The translations under genes and the position numbers were made by a program. Below are positions 34,997 through 40,994 of a stretch of 64,000 bases of DNA, one piece after another. Position 1 is the first letter of the stretch. Each line of letters opens with the position of its first letter. Source of the stretch: Solirubrobacteraceae bacterium (lineage in GTDB: Bacteria; Actinomycetota; Thermoleophilia; Solirubrobacterales; Solirubrobacteraceae); the NCBI GenBank assembly GCA_030447505.1, contig JAUJOT010000004.1, positions 62,001 through 126,000 on the forward strand, in the 5' to 3' direction. Under the pieces are notes generated by a model. The model was given only the letters and a program-made list of their open reading frames with translations, was not told where the DNA came from and ran no database searches.

Positions 34997-35572
34997 TCAG
35001 TCCAGCGCCAGCTCCATCACCTCGGCCTCGCGTCGCAGCCGCTGCAGGCAGCGCGCGCGCGTCGGGCCGATCGAGCCGACCGGCATCCCGATCGCGGCGC
35101 CGATCTCCTCGTAGCTGGGCATCGGGTCGCTGACGAGCAGGCGCAGCAGCGCCTGGTCGCGTGCGGGCAGCCGCGCAAAGGCCCGCCAGAGCATCGCGTC
35201 ACGCTCGTCGCACAGCAGCTCGGCGTCGATCGCCGGGGCGCGGCGATCGGGCTCGGGCATGTCGTCGCCCATCGGGATCTGGCGGCCGGCGCCGCGCAGC
35301 ACGCGCAGCGACTCGTGGCGCGCCGTCGTGGCGAGCCAGCCGCCCACCTTCGACGGGTCCTGGAGGCGGTCGATGTGCTCGGCCAGCCGCAGCCACGTCG
35401 TCTGCGAGACCTCGGACGCGTCGTCGGCGCAGAGGCGATGGTTGCGTGCGATCGCCCATACGAGCGCGGAGAAGCGGTCGACGAGCGCGCTCCAGGCCTG
35501 CTGGTCGCCGCTCGCTGCGGCGCGCACCAGCGCGCCGACGTCGGAAGTTGCCCTGTTGGCTTGCATCAGCAT
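34997..35572 (-). CDS. ECF-type RNA polymerase sigma factor
   Basis: Sigma-70 family protein (191 aa) with region 2 (AWSALVDRFSALVWAIARNH, then EVSQTTWLRLAEHIDRL) and region 4 (ARLPARDQALLRLLVSDPMP, SYEEIGAAIGMPVGSIGPTR). There is no C-terminal extension and no anti-sigma gene next to it. It is divergent from the AfsR-like regulator across 149 bp, so the two may be co-regulated. ATG 35572 is chosen as the first start in the conserved region; 35566 is also possible. Target promoters unknown. Confidence 0.88.
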   Translation of the reverse strand: MLMQANRATSDVGALVRAAASGDQQAWSALVDRFSALVWAIARNHRLCADDASEVSQTTWLRLAEHIDRLQDPSKVGGWLATTARHESLRVLRGAGRQIPMGDDMPEPDRRAPAIDAELLCDERDAMLWRAFARLPARDQALLRLLVSDPMPSYEEIGAAIGMPVGSIGPTRARCLQRLRREAEVMELALD

Positions 35573-35721: not shown

Positions 35722-38700
35722 ATGCAGGGTCAGCAGACCGACGACGTCACAGCCGCGACGCACGCGCGCATCGCGCTGTCGGGGACGCTGCGGGCCGAGA
35801 TCGGCGGCCGCGACGTCGCCGCCGAGCTGCCCGGCCGGCAGGGCCGCGCGCTGTTCGCCTTCCTCGTCGTCAATCGCCACCGGTCGGTGCCGCGCGGCGA
35901 GCTGACCGGCGTGCTGTGGCCGCACGAGCCGCCCGAGGCGCCGGAGGCCGGCCTGGCGACCGTGCTCGCGCGCACGCGCCGCGCGCTCGGCGAGGGCGTC
36001 GTGCAGGGACGGGGCGAGCTGCGGATCATGCTCTCGCCCGACGCGGAGGTCGACATCGAACGCGCGGAGGCGGCCGCCGAGGCCGCCGAGCGGGCGCTCG
36101 CGGGCGGCGATCCGCGCTTCGCGCGGGCGTCGGCCGAGGCGGCGCTGCAGATCATCGGCCGGCCGCTGCTGCCCGGCATCGAGGGCGACTGGGTCGAGAG
36201 CCGCCGCGGCGAGCTTGCGGCGCTCGAGCCCGGGCTGCTCGAGGTCCTCGCGCGCGCGGCGCTCGCCGTCGGCGGCCGCGAGCACCTGGCGGTCGCCGAG
36301 CGCGTCGCCCGCACGCTCGCCGAGCGCCACCCGTTCCGCGAGTCCGGCCATGCGCTGCTGATCGAGGTCCACGGCGCCCGCGGCAACATCGCCGAGGCGA
36401 CGCTCGCGTACGACCGCCTGCGCGTGTTCCTGCGCGACGAGCTCGGCACCGTGCCGTCGAGCGCCGTCTCGGCGCTGCACGAGGAGCTTCTGCACGACGG
36501 GCGCCTGCGCGCGTCGGACCAAGCCGCGGCGCCGGCGGCGGCGAGCGGCGCAGGCACGGCGACCACCACGAGCCCGATCCCGCTGCCGGTGATCGGCGGG
36601 ACGCCGGCGGCGACGCCGTTCGTCGGCCGCGAGCAGCAGCTGCGGCGCCTGCGGATGCCGTGGCTGGAGGCGATCACGAGCCAGCGGCGCCTGGCGCTGC
36701 TCGTCGGCGAGGCCGGCGTCGGCAAGACGCGGCTCGCCGCGCAGTTCGCCGCCGAGGTCGACAGCGCCGGCGCCGCCGTCCTCTACGGGCGCTGCGACGA
36801 GGAGCCGCTGTGCTCCTACCAGCCGTTCATCGAGGCGCTGCGCCACCTGCTGCGCCACGGCGATCTGGTCGGCGACGGCGAAGCGGCGCACGACCTCCAC
36901 GAGCTGGCGCGAATCCTGCCGCAGGCGCGGCCCGCGACGGCGGCCGGCGACGCGCCCGCCGGCCAGGACCCCGAGACGGAGCGCTACCGCCTCTTCGAAG
37001 CCGTCGCAGCGCTCCTGCGGCGCGCGAGCCGGCGCGCGCCGCTGCTGCTCGTCGTCGACGACCTGCACTGGGCCGACAAGCCGACGCTGCTGCTCCTGCG
37101 CCACCTCCTGCGCCACGCCGATCCAGCGCGCCTGATGGTGCTCGGCCTCGTCCGCGACGTCGAGGTCGGCGACGACCAGCCGCTGACCGAGCTGATCGCC
37201 GACCTGCGCCGCGAGCGGCGCTTCGACCGCATCGTGCTCGGCGGACTCAGCGAGCGCGAGGCCGATGCGCTCGTCGCCGCGCGCCTCGCCGCGCAGCCGC
37301 GTGCGGACTTCGTCGCCGGCCTGCACGCGCAGACGCAGGGCAACGCGTTCTTCATCGAGGAGGCGCTGCGGGCGCTCGTCGAGGCGCACCTGCTCGAGCC
37401 CGGCGGGGAGGCGAAGGCCGACGCGCTGCGGTCGATCGGCGTGCCGGAAAGCGTCGCCGACGTGATCCTGCGCCGGCTCGGCCGCGTCTCGCAGCTCGCG
37501 CGCGAGGCGCTCACGGTCGCGGCGACGATCGGCCCGGAGTTCGACCTCGCGATCGTCGAGGCGCTGGTCTCGTCATCTCCGGAGCACGTCATCGAAGCGC
37601 TCGAGGAGGCGATCGCGGCGGGGCTCGTCGCCGAGGTCGCCGAGTCCGTCGATCGCTTCGCGTTCTGCCACGCGCTGGCCCGCGACGCGATCTACGGCCG
37701 CCTGTCGCGCGCGCGCCGCCTGCGCCTGCACCTGCGCGTCGCAGCGGCGCTCGAGGCGGCGGGCGCGCCGCCGCGCACGCTCGCGCACCACTTCTTCGCG
37801 GCGCGCGAGGTCGGCGCCGCCGCGCAGGCCGTTCGCTACGCGGTCCTCGCCGGCGAGGAGGCCGCCGCGTCGCTGGCCTACGAGGACTCCGTCGAGCACT
37901 ACCGTCGCGCGCTGGAGGCGGTCGCCGCCGACCCGGCGGCCGACGAGGCGCAGCGCTGCGAGATCCTGCTCGCGCTCGGGCGCATCCAGTGGCGCTCCGG
38001 CGACGCCGCCGCTCGCGAGACGTACGTCGAGGCCGCGGCGAGCGCGCGCGAGCGCGGCGCGGCAGAGCAGCTCGGCCGCGCCGCCCTCGGGCTGGCCGAG
38101 CGCTACTGGGAGGCGAGCGCGGTCAACAGGCGCTACGCCGAGCTCATCACCGAAGCCGTGCAGGGATTGCCGGCCGAGGACAGCGCGCTGCGCGCACGCC
38201 TGCTGGGACGGATGGCGGAGAACCTGCACTTCACGGCCGAGCAGGACCACGGCAAGCAGCTCAGCGCCGACGCGCTGGCGATGGCACGCCGCGTCGGCGA
38301 CGCCGAGACGCTCGCGATGGCGCTCATGAGCCGCCACGTCACGCTGCTGCACATCGAGCACCTCGACGAGCGCGTCGCGCTCAGCGACGAGATCGTCTCG
38401 CTGAGCGGCGAGCATCGCGCGCTGCGCGCCGAGGCACTGCACTGGCGCCTGCTCGACATGTGCGAGCTCGGCGCTCCCGACGAGGCGCGCCGCGACCACG
38501 CCGAGCTCACCGCGCTCGCGGCGCAGCTGCGCCAGCCGCTGCTCGAGCACCTCGCGATCGGCTGGGAAGGCGCGTTCGCACATCTGCGCGGAGACGTCGC
38601 GGCGGCCGAGCGCCTTGCCGGCCGCTCCTTCAGGCAGGCCGGCCGCGCCCAGGTCGGGCACGCCGACAGCTACCTCGCCGGGATGCTCTACACGCTGCGC

Positions 38701-39309
38701 CGCCAGCAGGGCCGCGTCGGCGAGCTGCTGGCGTCGATGGACGCGCTCGCCGGCGGCGGGTCGGCGAACCTCGCCTGGAGCGCCGCCCTCGCGCTCGCGC
38801 AGGCCGAGACCGGCGCCGGCGAGGAGGGCCGCGCGCGCTACGCCGAGCTCGCCGCCGACGGCGCCCGTGCGGTACCGCGCGACTGGTACTGGTTCTTGAC
38901 CGTCGTGCTGCTCGCCGAGACCGCCTGCGAGCTGGGCGACGCCGAGCGCGCGCAGCAGCTCTACGACCTGCTTGCGCCCCACGCCGAGCGCTTCGTGCAG
39001 GTCATCTTCACCGCGAACTGGGGCTCGGTGCAGCGCCAGCTCGGCATGCTCGCGGCCGTCATGGAGCGCTTCGACGCCGCCGAGGAGCACTTTCGCGCCG
39101 CGCTCGCGGCGAACGGGCGCATCGGCGCGGTCCTGATGACGGCCGAGACGCAGGTGCAGTACGCCGCGCTGCTGGCGCGGCGCGGCGCCGCGGGCGACCG
39201 CGTCCGCGCGACGGCGCTTGCCGAGCTCGTCGAGCAGGTCGCGAGGCCGCGCGGCCTGGACGGGCTGCGCCGGCGGGCGCGCGCCGTCAGCGCAGGTCGG
39301 GATGCGTGA
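35722..39309 (+). CDS. AfsR-like transcriptional regulator: BTAD domain, AAA ATPase and TPR region
   Basis: Large regulator (1195 aa). Residues about 15-105 form an OmpR-like winged helix (ELPGRQGRALFAFLVVNRHR, then VPRGELTGVLWP). Residues 110-260 are the bacterial transcriptional activation domain, ending VFLRDELGTVPSSAVSALHE. An AAA/NB-ARC-like ATPase follows, with Walker A GEAGVGKT at 329-336 and Walker B VVDDLHWAD around 444-452. The C-terminal half is helical TPR-like repeat. GAGAGGAC precedes the ATG. Such proteins integrate signals to activate secondary-metabolite or envelope genes. Its target could be the divergent sigma gene or the downstream peroxidase. Confidence 0.92.
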   Translation: MQGQQTDDVTAATHARIALSGTLRAEIGGRDVAAELPGRQGRALFAFLVVNRHRSVPRGELTGVLWPHEPPEAPEAGLATVLARTRRALGEGVVQGRGELRIMLSPDAEVDIERAEAAAEAAERALAGGDPRFARASAEAALQIIGRPLLPGIEGDWVESRRGELAALEPGLLEVLARAALAVGGREHLAVAERVARTLAERHPFRESGHALLIEVHGARGNIAEATLAYDRLRVFLRDELGTVPSSAVSALHEELLHDGRLRASDQAAAPAAASGAGTATTTSPIPLPVIGGTPAATPFVGREQQLRRLRMPWLEAITSQRRLALLVGEAGVGKTRLAAQFAAEVDSAGAAVLYGRCDEEPLCSYQPFIEALRHLLRHGDLVGDGEAAHDLHELARILPQARPATAAGDAPAGQDPETERYRLFEAVAALLRRASRRAPLLLVVDDLHWADKPTLLLLRHLLRHADPARLMVLGLVRDVEVGDDQPLTELIADLRRERRFDRIVLGGLSEREADALVAARLAAQPRADFVAGLHAQTQGNAFFIEEALRALVEAHLLEPGGEAKADALRSIGVPESVADVILRRLGRVSQLAREALTVAATIGPEFDLAIVEALVSSSPEHVIEALEEAIAAGLVAEVAESVDRFAFCHALARDAIYGRLSRARRLRLHLRVAAALEAAGAPPRTLAHHFFAAREVGAAAQAVRYAVLAGEEAAASLAYEDSVEHYRRALEAVAADPAADEAQRCEILLALGRIQWRSGDAAARETYVEAAASARERGAAEQLGRAALGLAERYWEASAVNRRYAELITEAVQGLPAEDSALRARLLGRMAENLHFTAEQDHGKQLSADALAMARRVGDAETLAMALMSRHVTLLHIEHLDERVALSDEIVSLSGEHRALRAEALHWRLLDMCELGAPDEARRDHAELTALAAQLRQPLLEHLAIGWEGAFAHLRGDVAAAERLAGRSFRQAGRAQVGHADSYLAGMLYTLRRQQGRVGELLASMDALAGGGSANLAWSAALALAQAETGAGEEGRARYAELAADGARAVPRDWYWFLTVVLLAETACELGDAERAQQLYDLLAPHAERFVQVIFTANWGSVQRQLGMLAAVMERFDAAEEHFRAALAANGRIGAVLMTAETQVQYAALLARRGAAGDRVRATALAELVEQVARPRGLDGLRRRARAVSAGRDA

Positions 39310-39353
39310 TCTCGAACACGACGATGTATCTGAGGCGGCGCAGCCGCCTCTGA
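39306..39353 (+). CDS. 15-codon mini-ORF between regulator and peroxidase
   Basis: Reads VISNTTMYLRRRSRL. The GTG overlaps the regulator stop (GTGA) and the TGA lies 6 nt before the peroxidase ATG, so coupling would depend on re-initiation. It covers the hairpin at 39332-39350. Confidence 0.3.
   Translation: MISNTTMYLRRRSRL
39332..39350 (+). terminator. GC hairpin upstream of the peroxidase gene
   Basis: GAGGCGGC, loop GCA, GCCGCCTC: a perfect 8-bp stem just after the regulator gene and 10 nt before the peroxidase ATG. It could be a terminator for the regulator transcript or a structure gating peroxidase translation. Confidence 0.45.
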
Positions 39354-39359
39354 CCCTGC

Positions 39360-40994
39360 ATGACCAAGCTTGCCGAGGCCCCGATGGCTGAGATACGACG
39401 ATCCGCAGCGAAGCGCCGGCGCACGAAGAAGACGAGCCTCGTGGAGCTGCGCACGAGCCTGCCGACGCGCTTTGGCCCGCTGTGGCGGTTCATCCAGCGC
39501 ACCCCGCCGCTCGAGCGGATCGTCAATCGCGTGCTCATCAACCAGGGCATCAACGTCCTGCCGCCGCGCCCGTACCGCCTCAGCACGAAGCTCGACTTCA
39601 CGACGCAGGACACGCTCGTCGACAAGACCTACAACTGCCGCCAGCTTCCCCCGACGGACGCCGTCGATCCGCGCACGGATCCCGATCCCTGCGCTGTCGT
39701 CGAGCTCTTCCGGCGCCGTGAGTTCATTCCCTGCGAGAAGTCGACGGTGCTGTTCGCGTACGTCGCGCAGTGGTTCACGGACGGCTTTCTGCGCAGCGAC
39801 CGCAAGAACGTCGACAACGACGTGCGCGACATCCGTCGCAACGAGTCCACGCACGAGGTCGACCTGGCGCAGCTCTACGGCCTCGACGACGACGAGACCC
39901 AGGCGCTGCGCGACAAGCGCCAGCCGATGCTGCTCGCCCACCAGGGTGAGATCGGCGAGGAGCTGCCACCGGATCTCTACGACGCCGACGGGACGCGGGT
40001 GGCCCAGTTCGCCGGCCTGCGGGTCGTCGGAACGAAGAAGGTGAAGGTCGACAACGCCCAGCTGCTGGCGATGGGCAGCGACGTCTCGAACACGCAGATC
40101 GGCTACTCGATGCTCAACACCCTGTTCCTGCGCGAGCACAACCGGATCGCCCGCGAGCTCGCGCAGGCCAACCCGGGATGGCACGAGGACCGGATCTTCT
40201 ACGCCGCGCGCAGCGTCCTGACCGTGCTCCTGATCAGGGTCGTGATCGAGGAGTACATCAACCACATCCACCCCTACCACTTCCGCTTTCGCCTCGATCC
40301 GCGCGGCTTCGACAAGCAGCCGTGGATGCGGCCCAACTGGGTCGCGGTCGAGTTCAACCTGCTCTACCGCTGGCACAGCCTGATCCCGTCAGAGCTCGCG
40401 GTCGGCTCGCAGACGCTGCCGCTCGAGCAGACGGTGTTCCGCACGCGGGACCTGCTCTCCACGCACGGCCTCGCGGCGCTCGTCGACAGCGCCTCGCGCC
40501 AGCCCGCCGGCAAGGTCGGCCTGCGCAACACGCCCGAGATGCTGCTCTACAGAACCGACCTGCCGAGCATCAAGGCGGGGCGCGACGTGCGCCTGCGCGG
40601 CTACAACGACTACCGCGAGGCGTGCAGGTTCCCGCGCGCCAGGACCTTCGAGGACATCTCGTCGGACCCGGAGACGTGCGACGCGCTGCGCGAGCTGTAC
40701 GGCGACGACGTCGACGAGGTCGAGTTCTACGTCGGGCTGTTCGCCGAGGACAGCCGCCCGAACTCGGTGCTGCCGCCGCTGATCGGGCGCCTCGTCGGCC
40801 TGCACGCGTTCTCGCAGCTGCTGACGAACCCGCTCTTCTCTCGCGAGGTCTACAACGAGGCGACGTTCTCGCGTCGCGGAATGCAGATCATCGACGAGAC
40901 CCGCAGCCTGGGCGACGTCGTGCGACGCAACATCCCAGAGGGCACGCGGATGCCGCTCGTGACCCTCACGCGGCAGGACTGGAAGCGCGTGTAG
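39360..40994 (+). CDS. cyclooxygenase-like animal-type haem peroxidase
   Basis: Protein of 544 aa in the peroxidase-cyclooxygenase superfamily. The proximal haem ligand and the radical-forming Tyr of prostaglandin synthases are recognisable in EFNLLYRWHSLIP (Tyr336, His339; COX Tyr385 and His388). HNRIARELAQANPGW and VVIEEYINHIHPYHF match the flanking COX helices. At the distal site COX has AQHFTHQF; here it is AQWFTDGF, with Gln137 kept and the distal His replaced by Asp141. No signal peptide; the N-terminus is very basic (KRRRTKK). May oxidise fatty acids or lipid chains. The gene stands alone after the AfsR-like regulator. Confidence 0.88.
   Translation: MTKLAEAPMAEIRRSAAKRRRTKKTSLVELRTSLPTRFGPLWRFIQRTPPLERIVNRVLINQGINVLPPRPYRLSTKLDFTTQDTLVDKTYNCRQLPPTDAVDPRTDPDPCAVVELFRRREFIPCEKSTVLFAYVAQWFTDGFLRSDRKNVDNDVRDIRRNESTHEVDLAQLYGLDDDETQALRDKRQPMLLAHQGEIGEELPPDLYDADGTRVAQFAGLRVVGTKKVKVDNAQLLAMGSDVSNTQIGYSMLNTLFLREHNRIARELAQANPGWHEDRIFYAARSVLTVLLIRVVIEEYINHIHPYHFRFRLDPRGFDKQPWMRPNWVAVEFNLLYRWHSLIPSELAVGSQTLPLEQTVFRTRDLLSTHGLAALVDSASRQPAGKVGLRNTPEMLLYRTDLPSIKAGRDVRLRGYNDYREACRFPRARTFEDISSDPETCDALRELYGDDVDEVEFYVGLFAEDSRPNSVLPPLIGRLVGLHAFSQLLTNPLFSREVYNEATFSRRGMQIIDETRSLGDVVRRNIPEGTRMPLVTLTRQDWKRV

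What the first reader, a model, noticed from the sequence alone, without database searches (positions are those of the whole stretch)
39360..40994. Cyclooxygenase-like peroxidase with the distal haem histidine replaced by aspartate
The proximal His339 and the radical Tyr336 of prostaglandin-synthase-type enzymes are in place, and the Gln of the distal site is kept (Gln137). The distal His is Asp141 (AQWFTDGF against AQHFTHQF). In COX the distal His is needed for peroxide cleavage, so radical formation would need another mechanism. The protein sits alone after an AfsR-like regulator inside a polysaccharide locus, which suggests a lipid-oxidation or signalling role not yet described.
Basis: partly seen in the sequence, partly recalled or inferred. 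Interest (0 to 1): 0.65.

Follow-up and report, generated by a model that had tools for sequence, protein, structure and literature searches.

The report
Bacterial cyclooxygenase-like dioxygenase with distal aspartate
This soil-bacterium gene encodes a relative of the animal prostaglandin enzyme that probably adds oxygen to fatty acids; the odd aspartate in its haem pocket is the normal state of its bacterial family, and the less expected part is that it keeps company with two gene regulators.

Summary
Window 39360-40994 (+) encodes a 544-aa PF03098 protein. Two alignments put Asp141 on COX His207; Gln137, Tyr336 and His339 match Gln203, Tyr385 and His388. The Asp is not an oddity of this protein. 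It is present in all 40 aligned bacterial and phage relatives and in two dropped rows. A published review gives the same motif (FTDSF) for the characterised Nostoc linoleate/oleate 10S-dioxygenase (PMC13049297). COX Ser530 is Ala in 40 of 40, and no row keeps Arg120. So this is most likely a fatty-acid hydroperoxide-forming haem dioxygenase, not a prostaglandin synthase and not an undescribed enzyme type.

The gene sits with an ECF sigma gene and a BTAD/AAA_16 (AfsR-like) regulator. Two relatives keep all three genes together in a different order, in genomes with only 1-2 BTAD genes each. Other relatives neighbour P450s, catalase-like proteins or a fatty-acid desaturase. This suggests oxylipin production under dedicated control.

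Open: how the Tyr radical forms without a distal His; the product; whether the regulator senses it. Two structure predictions failed (pLDDT 37). Side finding: IMG/VR phages carry the same enzyme among structural genes.

The parts
39360..40994 (+). COX-like haem fatty-acid dioxygenase, 544 aa (possible alternative start at 39384)
39768..39770 (+). codon of Gln137, aligned to COX Gln203
39780..39782 (+). codon of Asp141, aligned to COX distal His207; Asp in 40 of 40 aligned relatives
40083..40085 (+). codon of Val242, second distal column (COX Val291; Arg in 20 of 40 rows, Val in 2)
40365..40367 (+). codon of Tyr336, aligned to COX radical Tyr385; invariant in 40 of 40
40374..40376 (+). codon of His339, aligned to COX proximal His388; invariant in 40 of 40
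40803..40805 (+). codon of His482, a change private to this protein (Asp in the other 39 of 40 rows; COX Phe529)
40806..40808 (+). codon of Ala483, at the COX aspirin-site Ser530; Ala in 40 of 40
35722..39309 (+). large BTAD + AAA_16 (AfsR/SARP-like) transcriptional regulator, 1195 aa, ends 50 bases before the dioxygenase
34997..35572 (-). ECF-type sigma factor (Sigma70_r2), divergent from the regulator; start taken at the internal ATG
39332..39350 (+). perfect 8-bp inverted repeat GAGGCGGC-GCA-GCCGCCTC between regulator and dioxygenase; one exact copy in the window, within chance for matches with up to 2 mismatches

Best explanation
The protein belongs to the bacterial branch of the peroxidase-cyclooxygenase superfamily that makes fatty-acid hydroperoxides and has Asp instead of His on the distal side of the haem. 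Shown by sequence: fold family, proximal His339, radical Tyr336 with the neighbouring Tyr299 (COX Tyr348), Gln137, family-wide Asp141, loss of COX Ser530 (Ala) and of Arg120. Inferred mechanism: haem bound by His339 reacts with a trace hydroperoxide; Asp141 with Gln137 stands in, poorly, for the distal His in O-O cleavage; the resulting oxidised haem draws an electron from Tyr336; the tyrosyl radical takes an allylic hydrogen from an unsaturated C18 fatty acid; O2 adds; the hydroperoxide is released rather than reduced because peroxidase turnover is weak. Because the radical is regenerated each turnover, slow priming is enough. In this genome the gene is probably under the adjoining BTAD/AAA_16 regulator and ECF sigma factor. 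Position and stereochemistry of oxygenation are not determined.
For: COX-2 match E 5.9e-56, profile E 2.1e-109. Asp 40/40, Tyr385 40/40, His388 40/40, Tyr348 40/40, Gln203 39/40, Ser530 as Ala 40/40, Arg120 kept in 0/40. Nostoc punctiforme 10S-DOX (B2J5P4) has F143-t-d-s-F where COX has F205-t-h-q-F, has Ala487 at Ser530, and makes 10S-hydroperoxides of oleate and linoleate (PMC13049297 section 6 and passages). Its FxxxY342 motif is met by the EFNLLY336 stretch. The window scores 8 of 15 specified letters of its terminal substrate motif, close relatives 10-11, mouse COX-2 2. Lipid context in relatives: P450 in 8 loci, of which 7 lie beside the dioxygenase; catalase-like protein in 7 loci, of which 4 lie beside it; fatty-acid desaturase next to L099. 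The Nostoc enzyme works with a catalase-related hydroperoxide lyase. The genome has two desaturase-family genes that could supply substrate.
Against: No activity or structure for any close relative was found. The window protein lacks two features of the Nostoc enzyme: Arg at the Val291 column (here Val) and Asp486 (here His482, unique among 40 rows). It has a long tree branch of 0.95 and has lost residues conserved in 33 of 34 rows (Trp83, Thr282), so it may have diverged in activity. Both structure predictions were unusable (mean pLDDT 37.1 and 36.9). The window has no P450 or catalase-like gene beside it. I could not read the Nostoc sequence itself, only published motifs.
Confidence: 0.75

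Rival explanations
1. It is a haem peroxidase that oxidises small substrates (halides, phenols, radicals), not a fatty-acid dioxygenase.
For: PF03098 covers peroxidases; second-tier PDB matches are lactoperoxidase, peroxinectin and myeloperoxidase.
Against: Distal His, the catalytic base of peroxidases, is absent. In 9 of 9 non-clade PF03098 proteins where my pattern found a distal motif it is His. The radical Tyr, Tyr348 partner and COX-type YxWH motif are invariant, and COX, not a peroxidase, is the nearest solved relative.
Confidence: 0.1
2. It is a true prostaglandin-type cyclooxygenase forming endoperoxides.
For: COX-2 is the closest solved relative; Tyr385, Tyr348 and His388 are kept.
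Against: Arg120 and Ser530 are absent from all 40 rows and the distal His is absent from all 40. A C20 polyunsaturated substrate is unlikely in such a bacterium (general knowledge, not tested).
Confidence: 0.05
3. The protein has lost catalysis and serves as a haem or lipid sensor for the neighbouring regulator.
For: Long branch, private changes at conserved positions (Trp83Gln, Thr282Ala, Asp482His), neither distal His nor distal Arg, regulator 50 bases upstream.
Against: Every COX-type catalytic residue other than the family-wide Asp is intact: Gln137, Tyr299, Tyr336, Trp338, His339. The sister regulator-linked enzymes L065 and L066 keep the standard residues.
Confidence: 0.1

Closest known systems
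Nostoc punctiforme linoleate 10S-dioxygenase (10S-DOX, NpDOX, UniProt B2J5P4; PMC13049297)
   Same: Size (542 vs 544 aa), distal Asp in FTDxF, Ala at COX Ser530, central Tyr, FxxxY catalytic motif, part of the terminal substrate motif.
   Different: Window has Val for the Arg at the Val291 column and His for Asp486; no catalase-related lyase gene beside it; regulator and sigma genes instead.
Cyclooxygenase (prostaglandin G/H synthase) 1 and 2
   Same: Fold family, proximal His, radical Tyr, Tyr348, distal Gln.
   Different: Distal His to Asp, Ser530 to Ala, Arg120 absent.
Fungal DOX-CYP fusion dioxygenases (8R-, 10R-DOX and kin)
   Same: Same superfamily and radical chemistry; some bacterial relatives of the window protein have a P450 gene next door.
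   Different: Fungal enzymes keep a distal His and are fused to P450; the window protein is not fused and has no P450 beside it.
Pseudomonas aeruginosa oxylipin quorum sensing (OdsR with diol synthases; PMC6377657 passages)
   Same: A 10S-oxygenated C18 acid made next to a gene for a regulator that responds to it.
   Different: There the enzymes are di-haem cytochrome c peroxidases and the regulator is LysR type; no response of the window regulator is known.

Membership tests
Peroxidase-cyclooxygenase superfamily (PF03098) | Match above the curated Pfam cut-off | tested here: met
   172.8 bits against cut-off 25, E 1.4e-50
Cyclooxygenase / PGHS | Proximal His388 and radical Tyr385 | tested here: met
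   His339 and Tyr336
Cyclooxygenase / PGHS | Distal His207 | tested here: not met
   Asp141; Asp in 40 of 40 rows
Cyclooxygenase / PGHS | Ser530 and carboxylate-binding Arg120 | tested here: not met
   Ala483 and Gly; Ala 40 of 40, Arg 0 of 40
Cyclooxygenase / PGHS | Endoperoxide product from a C20 polyunsaturated acid | not testable with these tools
   needs enzymology
Bacterial distal-Asp COX-like dioxygenase clade (defined here) | QxxxD distal motif, YRWH proximal motif, Ala at Ser530, over 30% identity along the length | tested here: met
   32-51% identity to the other 33 aligned bacterial rows; motifs 40 of 40 except Gln 39 of 40
Linoleate 10S-dioxygenase (Nostoc type) | FTDxF distal motif, Ala at Ser530, central and catalytic Tyr | tested here: met
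   against motifs published in PMC13049297
Linoleate 10S-dioxygenase (Nostoc type) | Arg at the Val291 column, called unique and conserved in DOXs | tested here: not met
   Val242; Arg in 20 of 40 rows
Linoleate 10S-dioxygenase (Nostoc type) | Terminal substrate motif | tested here: inconclusive
   8 of 15 specified letters; range in the 34 bacterial rows 3-11, COX-2 2
Linoleate 10S-dioxygenase (Nostoc type) | 10S-hydroperoxide product | not testable with these tools
   needs enzymology; therefore not filed as a 10S-DOX, only as working like one

The most novel reading that the evidence does not exclude
An actinobacterial oxylipin-signalling module: the distal-Asp dioxygenase makes a fatty-acid hydroperoxide that the adjoining BTAD/AAA_16 (STAND-like) regulator or the ECF sigma circuit responds to, using a tyrosyl radical primed without either of the usual distal catalytic residues (no His, and in this subclade no Arg). 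Similar large AAA regulators lie beside other relatives: a cyclase-AAA_16 protein in two Ruegeria loci and LuxR-type AAA proteins in two loci of the mycobacterial family.
Probability: 0.2. Interest if true: 0.7.

Novelty: new member of a known kind. Interest (0 to 1): 0.42.

Why it matters
The bacterial branch offers a natural test of a textbook point. COX needs its distal His for peroxide cleavage, yet a whole family has Asp there and at least one member is an active dioxygenase. Comparing subclades with Arg, His, Tyr, Thr or Val in the second distal column would show what is really needed to prime a tyrosyl radical. The regulator-linked subclade is a lead to oxylipin signalling in soil actinobacteria, and the phage-borne copies extend the family to viruses.

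Tried and rejected
Structure prediction over COX was tried twice, with 3 and with 9 aligned sequences. Mean pLDDT was 37.1 and 36.9, so no fold search was run and no geometry is claimed.

I first read the aspirin-site Ser as conserved (AFSQLL); the column alignment shows the adjacent Ala483 is the counterpart. Rejected.

Long N-terminal extensions of some relatives (open frames of 778-912 aa) looked like fusions. In L065 and L066 a sigma-factor gene on the opposite strand overlaps that stretch, so they are taken as spurious frame. Rejected as fusions.

A hydroperoxide-processing partner in this genome: one full-length catalase and one weak catalase-like hit, three P450s, none next to the dioxygenase. 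Not followed further.

The inverted repeat at 39332-39350 is not special by the folding test (z -1.49), and near-matches are expected by chance. No promoter or terminator pattern was found.

Literature: ten searches of the held library listed no paper on a BTAD- or AfsR-linked or phage-borne COX-like dioxygenase. The original 10S-DOX paper (recalled: Brash and colleagues, J Biol Chem 2014) is not held, so I rely on PMC13049297.

Rows dropped before the 34-row bacterial alignment: L073 (in-frame TAG), L105 (cut by contig end), L098 (same contig as L016). All three show Asp. Of the 12 plasmid records covering at least 80% of the query I read 9; three Paracoccus yeei near-duplicates (H2-H4) were not read. 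The 40-row set adds 6 phage proteins; L114, L115 and L129 were not aligned.

Full report
What is there. The ORF at 39360-40994 (+) encodes 544 aa and belongs to PF03098 (E 1.4e-50). NCBIfam has no model for it at E up to 0.1. The window lies in a 3.84 Mb draft genome with a single match to this protein.

The distal residue. phmmer with the single sequence and hmmsearch with a 13-sequence profile both align Asp141 with COX His207, Gln137 with Gln203, Tyr336 with Tyr385 and His339 with His388. I aligned 34 bacterial proteins with mouse COX-2 and later added 6 phage proteins. The distal residue is Asp in 40 of 40, Tyr385 and His388 are kept in 40 of 40, Gln203 in 39 of 40, Ser530 is Ala in 40 of 40, and Arg120 is Arg in 0 of 40. 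Two further rows left out as partial or interrupted also have Asp (L073, L105). This set was found by similarity to the window protein, so it describes its clade and not all bacterial COX relatives. As a control, among 41 loci holding other PF03098 or weak hits, my motif pattern, which allowed His or Asp, found a distal motif in 9 non-clade proteins, and all 9 have His.

Known precedent. PMC13049297 (section 6 and passages read) compares COX with the Nostoc punctiforme 10S-dioxygenase (B2J5P4, 542 aa). It gives F143-t-d-s-F for that enzyme against F205-t-h-q-F in COX, states that COX, 8R-DOX or 10S-DOX differ at the distal His207 position, and reports 10S-hydroperoxide formation from oleate and linoleate. 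PMC9579011 (passages) used recombinant NpDOX to make 10(S)-HPODE. So the distal Asp is compatible with fatty-acid dioxygenation. [quoted passage not shown] PMC4420034 (section 7 part 1) still called bacterial cyclooxygenases putative in 2015.

The second distal column. At COX Val291 the 40 rows have Arg 20, Thr 7, His 6, Tyr 3, Val 2, Asn 2. The review points to a conserved Arg there in the DOXs. The window protein has Val and most of its nearest relatives Thr, so in this subclade neither His nor Arg is available on the distal side by alignment. The window protein also has His482 where the other 39 rows have Asp, and lacks Trp83 and Thr282, each conserved in 33 of 34.

Distribution. Matches at E <= 1e-30: 10 of 146 genomes of the family, none of them among the six other genomes of the same genus; 7 of 396 spread over the phylum; 4 of 8 of another order; 11 of 251 of the family of G351, which includes the Mycolicibacterium xanthum contig. 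Plasmids of Paracoccus, Rhizobium, Sinorhizobium, Methylobacterium, Ruegeria and Acaryochloris carry relatives (12 of 72,556 records with at least 80% coverage). The patchiness suggests horizontal transfer or frequent loss (inference).

Neighbourhood. Of 37 loci compared (36 distinct), a BTAD/AAA_16 regulator is near the dioxygenase in 5 (window, L065, L066, L067, L095). A divergent ECF sigma gene is near it in 3 of these (window, L065, L066; domains). In L065 and L066 the order is sigma, dioxygenase, regulator; in the window it is sigma, regulator, dioxygenase, so the association survives a rearrangement. BTAD genes are few in three of these genomes: 2 in G000, 1 in G033, 2 in G013 (7 in G035 and 19 in G547). 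With about 3,700 genes (my estimate from genome size) chance adjacency in G000 would be about one in a thousand. In the tree, window, L095, L065 and L066 form one group (support 86/90), short of the tool's strong mark. Other relatives have a P450 gene (8 loci; in L071 it is about 4 kb away), a catalase-like gene (4 adjacent, 3 about 4 kb away), a desaturase (L099), or a LuxR-type AAA regulator (L100, L103 adjacent, L101 nearby). Twenty neighbour proteins of these loci were scanned, and several were unrelated housekeeping genes or had no Pfam match. The P450s keep the haem Cys motif, one of them in a form that my pattern missed. Nostoc 10S-DOX works with a catalase-related lyase, so catalase-like neighbours fit the same chemistry.

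Mechanism. Shown: residues and neighbours above. Inferred: slow peroxide priming through Asp141 and Gln137, tyrosyl radical at Tyr336, allylic hydrogen abstraction, O2 addition, release of a hydroperoxide. The regulator link is inferred from conserved proximity only. Substrate and product are unknown; the genome has two desaturase-family genes.

Limits. Both structure predictions failed. No cyanobacterial survey could be made and the Nostoc sequence itself was not available, so closeness to 10S-DOX rests on published motifs.

Side finding. Nine IMG/VR contigs carry a relative, 559-562 aa where complete. In L123 the order is terminase, portal, head protease, major head protein, unidentified genes, dioxygenase, then a tail-gene run ending in tape measure and tail protein (the tail terminator and minor tail protein were matched in the homologous genes of L116 and L113). 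The six aligned phage proteins keep the distal Asp and have Arg at the Val291 column. No match was found in 50,697 phage records or in PHROGs. IMG/VR was searched with patterns, so this count is a lower bound.

Noticed in passing
L113-L129 (IMG/VR contigs), e.g. L123 10001-11689: A COX-like distal-Asp dioxygenase lies between head and tail genes of bacteriophage contigs; no match in 50,697 phage records or in PHROGs.
   Followed up: partly
L054, L059, L061 (Rhizobiaceae plasmids); L068, L069, L070, L071, L094: A P450 gene lies next to the dioxygenase (about 4 kb away in L071) in two phyla, a possible unfused counterpart of the fungal DOX-CYP fusions.
   Followed up: partly
L053 2090-6566: In a Paracoccus yeei plasmid the dioxygenase follows a catalase-like gene and a RoxA-like cytochrome c gene.
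   Followed up: no
window 40803-40805: His482 replaces an Asp present in all other 39 aligned rows; it is next to the COX Ser530 position in the substrate channel motif.
   Followed up: no
L073 7446-9134 (G351): The dioxygenase gene is interrupted by an in-frame TAG, so it may be a decaying copy.
   Followed up: no
L066 2211-3704: A second An_peroxidase gene lies downstream of the regulator in G013, on the same strand.
   Followed up: no
L065 12524-13738: A Tle1-like phospholipase-domain gene follows the regulator, possibly a source of free fatty acid.
   Followed up: no
L064 (G000 contig 7, 244970-245143): A short catalase-like C-terminal stretch lies next to an alpha/beta-hydrolase-like ORF.
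   Followed up: no
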